DNA of 35,646 nucleotides from positions 1 to 35,646 of IMG/VR virus record IMGVR_UViG_3300037248_000486; one strand, 5' to 3'. The translations under genes were made by a program, and so were the position numbers. The notes under the pieces were generated by a model. The model was not told the DNA's origin, searched no databases, and saw only the letters and a list, made by a program, of their open reading frames with translations. The DNA is from a virus. Of the stretch, positions 17,389-35,646 are shown in pieces (position 1 is the stretch's first letter; each line of letters opens with the position of its first letter).

Positions 17389-17946
17389 TTAGGCGGCTCT
17401 GCCTCGAAGGAATTCATTTTTCTTGCGGCGTTCCGCGCTCTGTTCGGCGCGCGTCATCCACCTACAATTTCCCGGCTCGTAGTTGCCTATGTCCATGAAT
17501 CTGCCGAGAGTTGTGCCCGGTGGACGCTCGCCTACATCGGCGAGAAAATCTGCAAAGGAATTGAGCCAGCGGTTACAGGGTGTGACGCCTTTGGCACCAT
17601 AGCGGGGGTAGTTTGTGTTGCTAGGATTGGTACAACGCTGAATCATGTTTTCCCAAGAATGGTAGGTAGGTGTGCCGCGTTTCTTGGGGCTATAGCCGTG
17701 AATCGTGTTGATGACGGATGCGTTCGCGGTCATTGAGGGGAGTCGTTCTGCGATGCTCTCCCATCTAAGGCATCCACAGCTTTGAACCTGTCCACCCGTG
17801 AGATGAGAACCACGGATGACCTTTACGTTCTTGCACTCGCAAAGGCAGCGCCAATGTCTACTGCGGTTCTTACCCCTGTGAGCGGCGCGTCGGATAACGG
17901 TAAGGCGTCCGAAAACCTTTCCAGTCAGATCGAGAGCGGCTCCCAT
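17389..17946 (-). CDS. HNH endonuclease-like homing protein (185 aa)
   Basis: The N-terminus has the phage HNH-family opening 'DLTGKVFGRLTVIRR', then a four-Cys zinc module (C-L-C-E-C ... SCGCL). A middle helix 'TYHSWENMIQRC' leads to a C-terminal HNH-like end 'GNYEPGNCRWMTRAEQ'. The usual I-D-R-I-D motif before it reads L-G-R-F-M-D, so the conserved aspartate is a glycine; activity may be reduced or the variant natural. It lies behind the capsid-gene terminator with no clear ribosome site, as expected of a free-standing homing endonuclease dropped into a late operon. Confidence 0.75.
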   Translation of the reverse strand: MGAALDLTGKVFGRLTVIRRAAHRGKNRSRHWRCLCECKNVKVIRGSHLTGGQVQSCGCLRWESIAERLPSMTANASVINTIHGYSPKKRGTPTYHSWENMIQRCTNPSNTNYPRYGAKGVTPCNRWLNSFADFLADVGERPPGTTLGRFMDIGNYEPGNCRWMTRAEQSAERRKKNEFLRGRAA

Positions 17947-26387: not shown

Positions 26388-26624
26388 TCATTCATTTTCT
26401 ACAGATTTTTCGGAGATTTCAGAACCAATCAACGTTGATAATCCCGCGTCGCTCTGCGCGGTCTCTCGCTCTGTTCTAGGCATCATAGAATCCGCTGTGA
26501 GTTTTCCATCTAGCAACATGATTAGCTCGATGGCGCGCAAGCGAATGCGTTCTACCTTGGCAGTCTGTGCCAATCCTTGGAGCAGTTGTCTTGCGCTGAT
26601 TCGTCCGCGTCTTGGTTGAGCCAT
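26388..26624 (-). CDS. Small-terminase-like helical protein (78 aa)
   Basis: The start MAQPRRGRISARQLLQGLAQ is an ATG; a TTG start 18 codons upstream is unlikely. The stretch 'AKVERIRLRAIELIMLLDGKLTADS' matches what I know of short phage small-terminase or helix-turn-helix proteins of the 'RLRAxELIxKLxGKL' type. Leftward orientation and position upstream of the late module fit a packaging or DNA-recognition role. The ribosome site is poor (AGTAGG too close to ATG). Another possibility is a small regulator. Confidence 0.55.
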   Translation of the reverse strand: MAQPRRGRISARQLLQGLAQTAKVERIRLRAIELIMLLDGKLTADSMMPRTERETAQSDAGLSTLIGSEISEKSVENE

Positions 26625-26650
26625 CCTACTTATTACTGCAAAAACCGTGT

Positions 26651-26716
26651 GACAAAACTTGTCTCTTGACAAACCCAAAGGCTTTTGGGATAGTCAACGC
26701 ATCGGATACTTCCGAT
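26651..26716 (+). promoter_or_regulatory. Sigma70-like promoter with overlapping dyads
   Basis: The -35 TTGACA (26666-26671), a 17-base spacer and the -10 GATAGT (26689-26694) lie 35 bases ahead of the clamp-loader-like gene. Dyads surround it: GACAA-AAC-TTGTC at 26651-26663 sharing an arm with TTGTC-TCTT-GACAA at 26659-26672, CCCAAA-GGCT-TTTGGG at 26674-26689 filling the spacer, and ATCGGA-TACT-TCCGAT at 26701-26716 at the start site. The last two have identical 6-4-6 geometry. They look like operators. Confidence 0.75.
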
Positions 26717-26728
26717 AGGAGAAAAGCG

Positions 26729-27391
26729 ATGGCGACTGGCACACTGTTTCAAATGGAAGCGCAGACCGGGATGGAATTCCCCAAACCGTTGACGGAAGAG
26801 TTTAAGCCCGTGCGTCTGGCGGATTTTGTGGGGTTGGAAAAGCAAAAGAAGATACTGGCGAATCTTGCCAAGGCTCCGCGCCCGTGCGCTCTACTGTTCA
26901 AGGGCAGTTCCGGCACGGGTAAGACTTCGATGGCGTATGCGTTTGCGGCAGAGCTAGATGCCGATGTCTGGCACATCGGCAGTCAAGAATGTAAGGTTGA
27001 AAAATTGCAAGAGACCGTCGCTCGTTGCCACTATGTACCGCGTGCGGGTCTCAAAGCTTTCCACGTTGTGATTTGCGATGAGGCGGATTGCATGTCCGAT
27101 GCCGCGCAGAAGTATCTATTGTCCAAGCTTGACGGCACGGAAGCTTGCCCGAATACCATCTGGATTTTTACGTGCAATGCCGTGGAGAATTTCGCAGATC
27201 GGTTCTTGTCTCGTTGCATCGCGTTGCCGGATTTTAACTCTTACGGCTCTGGCGATGCGATTGCAGACTTCCTTGCGCGCGTCTGGCAAGCCAAGGCTCC
27301 TAGCGCAACCTGCCCGAACTTCAAGAAAATTGCCTGTGGAAACGTCCGGGAATCGTTGCAGAGACTTGAAACGGAATTGCTCGGTGTATAA
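26729..27391 (+). CDS. Clamp-loader-like AAA+ ATPase (220 aa)
   Basis: The start MATGTLFQME follows a strong AGGAG ribosome site; in-frame codons upstream would put the promoter inside the gene. Motifs in order are 'ADFVGLEKQKKILANL' (box II-like), Walker A 'GSSGTGKTS' (about 58-66), Walker B 'VVICDEAD', sensor 1 'FTCN' and an 'SRC' arginine-finger motif, as in RFC small subunit and DnaX. The third, collar-forming domain of clamp loaders is missing or very short: the C-terminus has only about 55 residues after SRC. It may load a host or phage clamp, or remodel another replication protein. Confidence 0.8.
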   Translation: MATGTLFQMEAQTGMEFPKPLTEEFKPVRLADFVGLEKQKKILANLAKAPRPCALLFKGSSGTGKTSMAYAFAAELDADVWHIGSQECKVEKLQETVARCHYVPRAGLKAFHVVICDEADCMSDAAQKYLLSKLDGTEACPNTIWIFTCNAVENFADRFLSRCIALPDFNSYGSGDAIADFLARVWQAKAPSATCPNFKKIACGNVRESLQRLETELLGV

Positions 27392-32167: not shown

Positions 32168-32821
32168 TTAGGGCACAATTCTGACGCGGTCGGCTAGGGA
32201 TGACGCGCCATATAGATCGTACTCAGAGATAGGCGGCATCTTACCCTGAGGGTAAGTTGGGGGTACAAGCGGGGTACAAGGTTTAGGTACGGATTTAGGT
32301 ACATTTAGGTCGCGTCGCTTCATCGTCGCCATCGCCTTTAGGTCAATCCGCTCGATTCGGTTCCCGTCGTCGTCCACGGCTATGAACGGCTTCTTTGGCT
32401 CCGGCTCTTTCCACGTACCGCGCTCAATCTTCCGCGCCTCAAACTCCACGCGCTCCCATCGGTACTGGTACATCCGGCGCTTTAGGTCGTTAAACTCCGG
32501 CGATTTGTCGGGGTAAAGAACTTCGGGAATGGGGAAGGTGATCGGCACGCAAAATCTTGGGCGCTTGACGCGGTTGGGATTGGGTCCGAAGAAAAGGCAC
32601 TCTTTGTTCCAACATCCGCACGATTGAACGCCGCCATGCCCTTTACGTTGACCGCTGGCGTACCGCTGTCCGGCGTGTACTTGGTTCTGGGTGGCTTGGA
32701 ATCCCTTCGTGCCGCAGTCGCAATTGAAAGTCCATAGCGCCTTACCCCACTTGGTGCCTACGCGCTCTACGGCGGTAAGCCGTCCGAATCGCATCCCGGC
32801 GATATTGACCATCTTGGGCAT
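32168..32821 (-). CDS. HNH-family-like zinc protein lacking the nuclease end (217 aa)
   Basis: The N-terminal 70 residues match those of phage HNH proteins: 'GMRFGRLTAVERVG', then C-D-C-G and S-C-G-C-W. Beyond residue 75 the sequence becomes unrelated, basic and Pro-rich with no H-N-H or 'NYEPGNCRW' motif. It may be a homing endonuclease remnant reused as a DNA-binding protein or regulator. An AGGT ribosome site is weak. The upstream neighbour is divergent, only 26 bases away. Confidence 0.6.
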   Translation of the reverse strand: MPKMVNIAGMRFGRLTAVERVGTKWGKALWTFNCDCGTKGFQATQNQVHAGQRYASGQRKGHGGVQSCGCWNKECLFFGPNPNRVKRPRFCVPITFPIPEVLYPDKSPEFNDLKRRMYQYRWERVEFEARKIERGTWKEPEPKKPFIAVDDDGNRIERIDLKAMATMKRRDLNVPKSVPKPCTPLVPPTYPQGKMPPISEYDLYGASSLADRVRIVP

Positions 32822-34721: not shown

Positions 34722-35405
34722 TTAGACGCGCGCGAGGAAGTAGTCGCGCCATTTTGGTAGATCGGCTTGTACCACGGCGGCATCGTGCATGAACGGAACG
34801 CAATGTGGACACAAGCAATCGAGGAAAGTTCTGTAGCCAATTTGCTCCGGCACAATCCCCGCATCCCGCGCAATAAAGCCCATACAGTAGTCCTCACGAT
34901 TGCCCTGCTCGCCGGGTGGACGGACGGTGTTCTTGACAAGAGACATGAACCGCCTATCCACCCAATAGCAGAATCCATTCGCATACGGCGGGTCATTCGA
35001 CGGGTCGTCGGCACGCAGTTTGTGTCCGATAATATTTCCCGCGTAGGTGTACGGCTTTACCAAACTCAAAAACTTGTCAACGTGGATGTAGGTATCATCA
35101 TCAACCTTCGCCGCCTGATCGTATCCGTGGTCAAGCGTCCACTGCCACATCCCCTGTACCTTATCGAAAACGTCTATGTATCCGTCGCCGCAGTCTAGTT
35201 GAACTTCGTCCGGCAATAACTCCCGCTGCTGTTCTCCGCCGTAGAAAAATCTGGTATCAATTTTGCCCACGGTGTCGGGCAGCCATGTGTCACGTATCCA
35301 CTGCACGCGGTCGTTGGGTCTGTCCCGATGTATGCCGCTATTGGAGTAGGTTGAGTACGTCCGGTTCCAACACGTAGGAATCGCTATGAGGAGTCTAGGC
35401 TTCAT
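34722..35405 (-). CDS. GT31-type (galactosyltransferase-like) glycosyltransferase (227 aa)
   Basis: The motifs of Galactosyl_T/Fringe-like GT31 enzymes appear in order: 'IAIPTC' start, 'RVQWIRDTW' (RxxIRxTW), the metal-binding D-x-D region 'KVDDDTYIHV', 'YANGFCYWVDRRF', and 'REDYCMGFIARDAGI' (the E-D-V-x-x-G motif). No signal anchor is present, so it would act in the cytoplasm. Possible substrates are phage virion proteins, modified DNA bases or host surface sugar precursors. The ATG overlaps the end of the HNH gene by 11 bases. The family is common in eukaryotes and rare in phages. Confidence 0.75.
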   Translation of the reverse strand: MKPRLLIAIPTCWNRTYSTYSNSGIHRDRPNDRVQWIRDTWLPDTVGKIDTRFFYGGEQQRELLPDEVQLDCGDGYIDVFDKVQGMWQWTLDHGYDQAAKVDDDTYIHVDKFLSLVKPYTYAGNIIGHKLRADDPSNDPPYANGFCYWVDRRFMSLVKNTVRPPGEQGNREDYCMGFIARDAGIVPEQIGYRTFLDCLCPHCVPFMHDAAVVQADLPKWRDYFLARV

Positions 35406-35646
35406 TGCTCACCGAACCACACTTACATAGACCGTTGTAGTACTGATGTCGCTTCGAGTAGATGGGACACGGCGGGCGGTTGTAGTCTCCCCGGTTGTCG
35501 CTTTGTTCTTTTGCGGTCGCCCAATGGCAGTTACCCGGCTCGTAGTTGCCGTCGTTCTTGATGCGGTCAATGGAGTAGAGGCGTTTGGGTTCGGGTTTCT
35601 GTCCCATGTCCGCAAAGAAGTTCTCGAATGAGTTAAGCCAATGGTC
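35395..35646 (-). CDS. HNH endonuclease, C-terminal part, cut by the window edge
   Basis: The frame is open from the right edge to a TAG at 35395. It reads 'DHWLNSFENFFADMG', then 'YSIDRIKNDGNYEPGNCHW' with an intact D-R motif, and aligns well with the end of the HNH protein at 17389-17946. The tail C-P-I-Y-S-K-R-H ... G-L-C-K-C-G is an extra zinc-like motif matching that of the 73-residue protein at 27399-27620. The start is outside the window. Confidence 0.8.
   Translation of the reverse strand, partial: DHWLNSFENFFADMGQKPEPKRLYSIDRIKNDGNYEPGNCHWATAKEQSDNRGDYNRPPCPIYSKRHQYYNGLCKCGSVSNEA

What the first reader, a model, noticed from the sequence alone, without database searches (positions are those of the whole stretch)
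34722..35405. GT31-like glycosyltransferase encoded by a phage
All hallmark motifs of the Galactosyl_T/Fringe type (RxxIRxTW, VDDDTY, EDxxxG) are present in a 227-residue soluble protein between a block of tiny phage genes and an HNH gene. Phage glycosyltransferases usually belong to other families (GT2, GT4, beta-glucosyl DNA transferases). It could glycosylate a virion protein, hypermodified DNA or a host receptor.
Basis: partly seen in the sequence, partly recalled or inferred. Interest (0 to 1): 0.7.

Follow-up and report, generated by a model that had tools for sequence, protein, structure and literature searches.

The report
Phage-encoded GT31-family glycosyltransferase gene
An uncultivated soil-type phage carries a small gene for a sugar-transferring enzyme of the same family (GT31) that builds human blood-group-like sugar chains, and related phages carry it inside larger sugar-building gene clusters, so it probably helps the phage put its own sugar decoration on its particles or on its host's surface.

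Summary
The finding holds. A 227-aa ORF lies at 34722-35405, on the MINUS strand. It passes Pfam's Galactosyl_T cut-off (25 vs 23 bits, E 1.9e-5). A profile of it and its relatives matches C1GalT1, B3GalT5/6, B3GLCT and B3GNT2 in the PDB (E down to 1.5e-14). Its AlphaFold2 model (pTM 0.81) has the GT-A fold; the 17 top realigned entries are all GT31-type enzymes (Z 15.3-18.7; best other family 12.9).
It is not unique. It belongs to a phage-borne GT31 group, single domains or fusions with GT2/GT11; the window protein has no PHROG and no match in 50,697 phage records. The virion genes are collinear with Acidobacteriota podovirus Tunturi_3. Seven of eight long (36 kb or more) records of its terminase lineage carry GT31 genes. 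Three have GT31, GT6 and GT11 together with sugar-nucleotide genes, an enzyme set resembling ABH blood-group synthesis.
Best reading: a cytosolic, Mn/UDP-sugar-dependent inverting beta-1,3-glycosyltransferase that extends a phage-specified glycan, most likely on the virion. Donor, acceptor and target are inferred, not shown. Absence of thymidylate-synthase-type and GtrA genes in 13 records weakens the DNA-modification and gtr-type readings.
New member of a known kind; moderately interesting.

The parts
34722..35405 (-). GT31-like glycosyltransferase, 227 aa, single GT-A domain, no predicted membrane segment
35283..35294 (-). RDTW (residues 38-41), the R-x-T-W motif at the N-terminal helix, conserved in the phage relatives
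   Evidence: alignment A2, (T40, W41 at least 90% conserved)
35088..35108 (-). KVDDDTY (residues 100-106), DxD metal/UDP-sugar motif
   Evidence: D104 and T105 invariant in 14 sequences
34878..34895 (-). EDYCMG (residues 171-176), GT31 'EDxxxG' motif; D172 inferred catalytic base
   Evidence: D172 invariant in 14 sequences; role inferred from the GT31 family
35395..35646 (-). HNH endonuclease ORF, cut off by the contig end, overlapping the GT31 start by 11 bases; a related HNH ORF lies just upstream of GT31 in L200
   Evidence: 55% identity over 49 aa
33117..34706 (+). block of short convergent ORFs of unknown function (two with zinc-finger-like Cys patterns), ending 15 bases before the GT31 stop codon
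22733..24577 (-). terminase large subunit, used to place the phage

Best explanation
The gene encodes a genuine GT31-family, GT-A-fold enzyme working in the infected cell's cytosol. By family precedent it binds a UDP-sugar through Mn2+ held by the DxD (D102/D104), D172 acts as base, and it transfers the sugar with inversion, giving a beta-1,3 link on a sugar acceptor. In this phage group it extends a phage-specified glycan, most likely one attached to a virion protein (capsid, tail or collagen-like fibre). SHOWN: family, fold, motif conservation, phage context, and occurrence inside phage glycan-synthesis clusters in relatives. INFERRED: activity, linkage, donor, acceptor and the virion as target.
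For: Family and fold: Pfam; PDB profile matches only to GT31-type enzymes at E <= 0.01 (C1GalT1 1.5e-14, B3GalT6 1.5e-10, B3GalT5 2.1e-10, B3GLCT 3.3e-10, CHSY3, B3GNT2, Manic Fringe); AF2 pTM 0.81; the 37 top Foldseek rows are all GT31-type; VIA Z 18.7 for B3GalT5, 15.3 for C1GalT1, next family 12.9. Maintained in phages: relatives in other phage contigs and in 7 of 8 long records of the window's terminase lineage. Context: GT31 with GT2, GT17, GT6, GT10, GT11, GDP-mannose dehydratase, epimerases, aminotransferase and methyltransferases. Virion link: in L125 two GT31 genes flank a collagen-repeat protein and lie downstream of the capsid gene; in L126 three lie beside large tail-module-like ORFs. 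No multi-TM flippase or polymerase by a crude scan of the cluster loci; no thymidylate-synthase family or GtrA in 13 records. Precedent: virion glycosylation in mycobacteriophages (Freeman et al. 2023, as cited in PMC11256854 and PMC12619734).
Against: In the window itself the gene stands alone at a contig end beside an HNH gene and tiny ORFs, not in a virion module or a sugar cluster, so the target rests on relatives only 25-33% identical overall. No donor or acceptor specificity can be read from the sequence. Residues 194-212, near where GT-A enzymes usually place the metal-binding His, have pLDDT under 50. Host flippases could carry the product to the cell surface instead.
Confidence: 0.5

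Rival explanations
1. Host-surface remodelling: the enzyme adds a beta-1,3 sugar to lipid-linked or LPS/exopolysaccharide glycans of the host, altering the receptor (superinfection exclusion or serotype conversion).
For: Sugar-nucleotide and multiple GT genes cluster in relatives; bacterial chromosomal relatives occur in about 8% (22 of 289) of sampled genomes of the Akkermansia phylum, mostly as domains of larger proteins.
Against: No GtrA in 13 records, no multi-TM flippase/polymerase seen in clusters, the protein has no membrane segment, and some relatives are embedded in the virion module.
Confidence: 0.27
2. DNA hypermodification: the enzyme glycosylates a hydroxymethylated base in phage DNA.
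For: Viral GTs that glycosylate DNA are known (Pyle et al. 2024, cited in PMC12619734).
Against: No thymidylate-synthase-family hydroxymethylase in the window or 12 related records (most records are fragments); the best structural matches are sugar-on-sugar or sugar-on-protein enzymes; the neighbours make sugars, not nucleotides.
Confidence: 0.07
3. Passenger or decaying gene hitch-hiking with the upstream HNH homing-type endonuclease.
For: HNH directly upstream, overlapping 11 bases; the same neighbour pair in L200; some relatives have lost the DxD (L125 13486-14121 'FRAFSDTC', L126 13753-14514 'FRCFPDTF').
Against: In the window copy every tested motif is intact and the frame is open; GC and GC3 resemble the phage's other genes; the gene recurs across the lineage, mostly without an HNH neighbour.
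Confidence: 0.1
4. Not GT31 but another GT-A family (GT2, GT6, GT8, GT25) with a chance DDD motif.
For: All GT-A enzymes share the fold; Z values to glycogenin are about 12.5.
Against: Sequence profile and fold both rank only GT31-type enzymes at the top, and Pfam's own cut-off is met.
Confidence: 0.03

Closest known systems
Eukaryotic GT31 beta-1,3-glycosyltransferases (B3GalT5, B3GalT6, B3GNT2, C1GalT1, B3GLCT, Fringe)
   Same: GT-A fold over the whole chain (Z 15-19), RxTW, DxD and EDxxxG motifs, profile E 1e-14 to 6e-4
   Different: 227 aa with no membrane anchor or stem; 18-21% identity; cytosol of a phage-infected bacterium rather than Golgi/ER; substrates unknown
Fringe-like protein A0A8S5QEQ3 [Myoviridae sp. 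ctn8H20] (BFVD)
   Same: A database phage protein whose predicted structure matches the model (E 1.7e-9); shows that automatic GT31/Fringe annotation in phages already exists
   Different: 612 aa; 14% identity; no functional data seen
GT31 domains of metagenomic phage contigs (L121, L123, L125-L128; L199-L205)
   Same: Same domain and motifs, 25-33% identity; the window falls among them in the tree (90/86, branch not starred)
   Different: Often several copies, fused to GT2 or GT11, or set in sugar-nucleotide clusters
Virion-glycosylation enzymes of mycobacteriophages (Che8, Rita) and of chlorovirus PBCV-1
   Same: Virus-encoded GTs linked to virion glycans
   Different: Mycobacteriophage GTs were not compared here; the PBCV-1 enzyme (2p72/2p73) shares only the GT-A fold (Z 12.1)
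Tunturiibacter phages Tunturi_3 and Tunturi_5
   Same: Tunturi_3: collinear virion genes at 25-37% identity, so probably a related Acidobacteriota podovirus
   Different: No GT31 found in either by tblastn; the two Tunturi_5 'galactosyl transferases' do not match the GT31 profile

Membership tests
GT31 / Pfam Galactosyl_T (PF01762) | Score above the curated cut-off | tested here: met
   25.0 vs 23 bits, E 1.9e-5, residues 35-119
GT31 / Pfam Galactosyl_T (PF01762) | Profile similarity to biochemically known GT31 enzymes | tested here: met
   C1GalT1 1.5e-14, B3GalT6 1.5e-10, B3GalT5 2.1e-10, B3GLCT 3.3e-10 with the family profile; the single sequence alone gives only E 0.32 to C1GalT1
GT31 / Pfam Galactosyl_T (PF01762) | GT-A fold, GT31 enzymes as nearest structures | tested here: met
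GT31 / Pfam Galactosyl_T (PF01762) | RxTW, DxD and EDxxxG motifs in order | tested here: met
GT31 / Pfam Galactosyl_T (PF01762) | C-terminal metal-binding His | tested here: inconclusive
   A His occurs near residue 207, but the region has pLDDT under 50 and the alignment is unsure there
GT31 / Pfam Galactosyl_T (PF01762) | Inverting UDP-sugar beta-1,3 transferase activity | not testable with these tools
   needs an enzyme assay
Fringe (PF02434) | Score above the curated cut-off | tested here: not met
   11.9 vs 21 bits; some relatives do pass
Phage PHROG or NCBIfam glycosyltransferase families | Match to an existing profile | tested here: not met
   no PHROG (E <= 1), no NCBIfam
gtr-type serotype-conversion system | GtrA flippase gene in the genome | tested here: inconclusive
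   0 of 13 records, but the records, the window included, are fragments
Glycosylated hypermodified phage DNA | Thymidylate-synthase-type hydroxymethylase in the genome | tested here: inconclusive
   0 of 13 records, but the records are fragments, and other routes to a modified base were not tested

The most novel reading that the evidence does not exclude
The GT31 belongs to a phage-owned pathway that makes a histo-blood-group-like glycan: GT31 lays a beta-1,3 link, GT11 adds alpha-1,2-fucose, GT6 adds an alpha-1,3 Gal/GalNAc-type sugar, with phage-encoded GDP-fucose-type synthesis. Such a decoration would be worn by phages of soil bacteria. The GT31/GT6/GT11 neighbourhood is seen in four phage records (three of the window's terminase lineage plus L127), but the window contig ends before it could show such a cluster.
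Probability: 0.15. Interest if true: 0.75.

Novelty: new member of a known kind. Interest (0 to 1): 0.5.

Why it matters
GT31 is usually discussed as a eukaryotic Golgi family; no phage GT31 was found described in the open papers searched. A compact group of phage GT31 enzymes, present in most long genomes of one uncultivated lineage and often multiplied and clustered with GT6/GT10/GT11, gives a testable entry to phage-made complex glycans: what they are, what carries them, and whether they shield virions. Small soluble GT31 enzymes could also be useful beta-1,3-glycosylation tools.

Tried and rejected
Single-sequence look-ups found nothing: phages, plasmids, IMG/VR and genome contigs by short peptides, PHROGs, NCBIfam; a KVDDDTY DNA pattern plus phmmer then found the relatives. 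Tunturi_5 gp300/gp301, annotated 'galactosyl transferase', do not match the GT31 profile. A contig extending the window to the right was sought by a 30-mer near its end and not found. Relatives of a virus record are not drawn by the genome search. DNA modification and gtr conversion were tested by marker genes and not supported. A TM scan for flippases in the clusters was negative but crude. Papers: GT31 with phage gave no relevant record; two searches gave only papers on other systems.

Full report
OBSERVATION. The ORF at 34722-35405 exists as described but on the minus strand: 227 aa, ATG start, open to its stop. The motifs are at residues 33-41 (RVQWIRDTW, so RxxxIRxTW), 100-106 (KVDDDTY) and 171-176 (EDYCMG). 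To its right, on the same strand and overlapping by 11 bases, an HNH ORF runs off the contig (PHROG HNH endonuclease, E 1.4e-18). To its left, convergent + strand ORFs of about 55-115 aa end 15 bases from its stop.

FAMILY. Pfam Galactosyl_T is matched above its gathering score (25.0 vs 23, E 1.9e-5), Fringe is not (11.9 vs 21). PHROGs, NCBIfam, the INPHARED phage records and PLSDB plasmids give nothing, and the single sequence reaches the PDB only at E 0.32. A scan of IMG/VR for DNA encoding KVDDDTY, followed by phmmer, gave true relatives (E down to 7e-26, blastp 29-41% identity), and a search with the first alignment confirmed nine loci. With the family profile the PDB matches at E <= 0.01 are all GT31-type enzymes: C1GalT1 1.5e-14, B3GalT6, B3GalT5, B3GLCT, CHSY3, B3GNT2, Manic Fringe and chondroitin synthase 2. 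The matches to sulfotransferases at E about 0.9 in an earlier, looser search are noise.

FOLD. AlphaFold2 with 14 aligned sequences gives pLDDT 79.6 and pTM 0.81; weak stretches are 18-27 and 194-212. The top 37 Foldseek rows in the PDB are GT31-type (E 6.7e-11 to 1.1e-5). After realignment, B3GalT5 has Z 18.7 (193 residues, 3.6 A) and C1GalT1 Z 15.3; the best other family has Z 12.9. In the viral library the best rows include an elephant herpesvirus B3GNT-like protein and a 'Fringe-like' protein of Myoviridae sp. ctn8H20, so such annotations in phages already exist in databases.

THE PHAGE. Among listed isolates the terminase scores highest with Tunturiibacter phage Tunturi_3 (E 1e-32). About ten window ORFs, including portal (33%), MCP (34%), a 354-aa structural ORF (37%) and the 1110-aa ORF (32%), match its virion module. 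An Acidobacteriota host is therefore likely but not shown. GC and GC3 of the GT31 gene resemble those of the phage core genes.

DISTRIBUTION. Of 22 records related by terminase, seven have a GT31 match, all among the eight records of 36 kb or more; G318 and G320 look near-identical, so the number of independent cases is nearer six. One record (G317) has about five copies. Short fragments without a match say nothing. In the wider set, G003, G005, G006 and G007 carry two or three each. In a sample of 289 genomes of the phylum of an Akkermansia MAG, 22 have a match, mostly as a domain of large proteins. In a tree of 41 domains the phage rows group together (92/80) apart from the bacterial and PDB rows, and the window falls with L121, L123, L125 and L126 (90/86); neither branch is starred and the window's branch is long, so this is suggestive only.

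CONTEXT IN RELATIVES. L123 has GT31, methyltransferase, GT17, GT2-like, GT31, GT2, FkbM methyltransferase, epimerase and GT2 in a row. L125 has a GT31-GT2 fusion and a second GT31 flanking a collagen-repeat ORF, downstream of the capsid gene. L127 has GT6, GT31, GT11, epimerase, DegT aminotransferase and GDP-mannose dehydratase. L199, from the window's terminase lineage, has GT2-like, GT31, GT6, GT11, transketolase-like, epimerase, dTDP-sugar isomerase, DegT and GDP-mannose dehydratase. L202 has five GT31 genes with GT2, GT10, GT11, epimerase and GDP-mannose dehydratase. GT6 lies beside GT31 in G304, G308, G314 and G007. In L203/L204 (G318/G320), by contrast, the GT31 gene stands alone, as in the window.

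MECHANISM. Following GT31 precedent (own knowledge of the family), D102/D104 hold Mn2+-UDP-sugar, D172 is the base and the product is beta-1,3 linked. These steps are inferred; conservation of D104, T105 and D172 across 14 sequences is shown. The absence of a membrane segment in the protein and of flippase-like ORFs in the clusters, the lack of thymidylate-synthase and GtrA families, and the virion-module location in L125/L126 favour a virion glycan over DNA or a gtr-type surface change. Mycobacteriophage capsid glycosylation is the nearest precedent. The weight on the virion target is modest, because the window gene itself is isolated at a contig end.

VERDICT. A real, well-supported GT31 enzyme in a phage; new member of a known kind; the lineage-wide pattern and the ABH-like enzyme set in relatives are what make it worth following.

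Noticed in passing
L199 2-9739; L200 69-9882; L201 8657-11557; L127 1622-8830: GT31, GT6 and GT11-type genes adjacent or nearly so in phage records, with GDP-mannose dehydratase in L199 and L127: the enzyme types needed for ABH-like antigens. The GT6 copies carry DxD (DSD, DVD) rather than the metal-independent form reported for the bacterial GT6 of PMC3961637; the GT11 of L200 and L201 was recognised by eye only.
   Followed up: partly
L202 4962-13941: Five GT31 genes in one 9-kb stretch with GT2, GT10, GT11 and GDP-mannose dehydratase: a local multiplication of one GT family.
   Followed up: partly
L125 13486-14121; L126 13753-14514: GT31 paralogues in which the DxD region has become FSD or FPD; possibly metal-independent, inactive or lectin-like.
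   Followed up: no
window 17389-17946, 32168-32821, 35395-35646: Three HNH-type or related ORFs on the minus strand; the third overlaps the GT31 start, and L200 has a related HNH beside its GT31.
   Followed up: partly
L143 16959-18697 (Tunturi_5 gp300, gp301): Annotated 'galactosyl transferase' in the record but not related to GT31 by profile; gp300 looks like a polysaccharide pyruvyltransferase by eye.
   Followed up: partly
window 26612-27391: A clamp-loader-like ATPase ORF with lower GC3 (0.58) than the other phage genes tested.
   Followed up: no
L129 4696-6621: Akkermansia MAG protein with a GT31 domain at the C-terminus of a 642-aa open frame; the N-terminal part, unmatched in Pfam, looks GT25-like by eye.
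   Followed up: no
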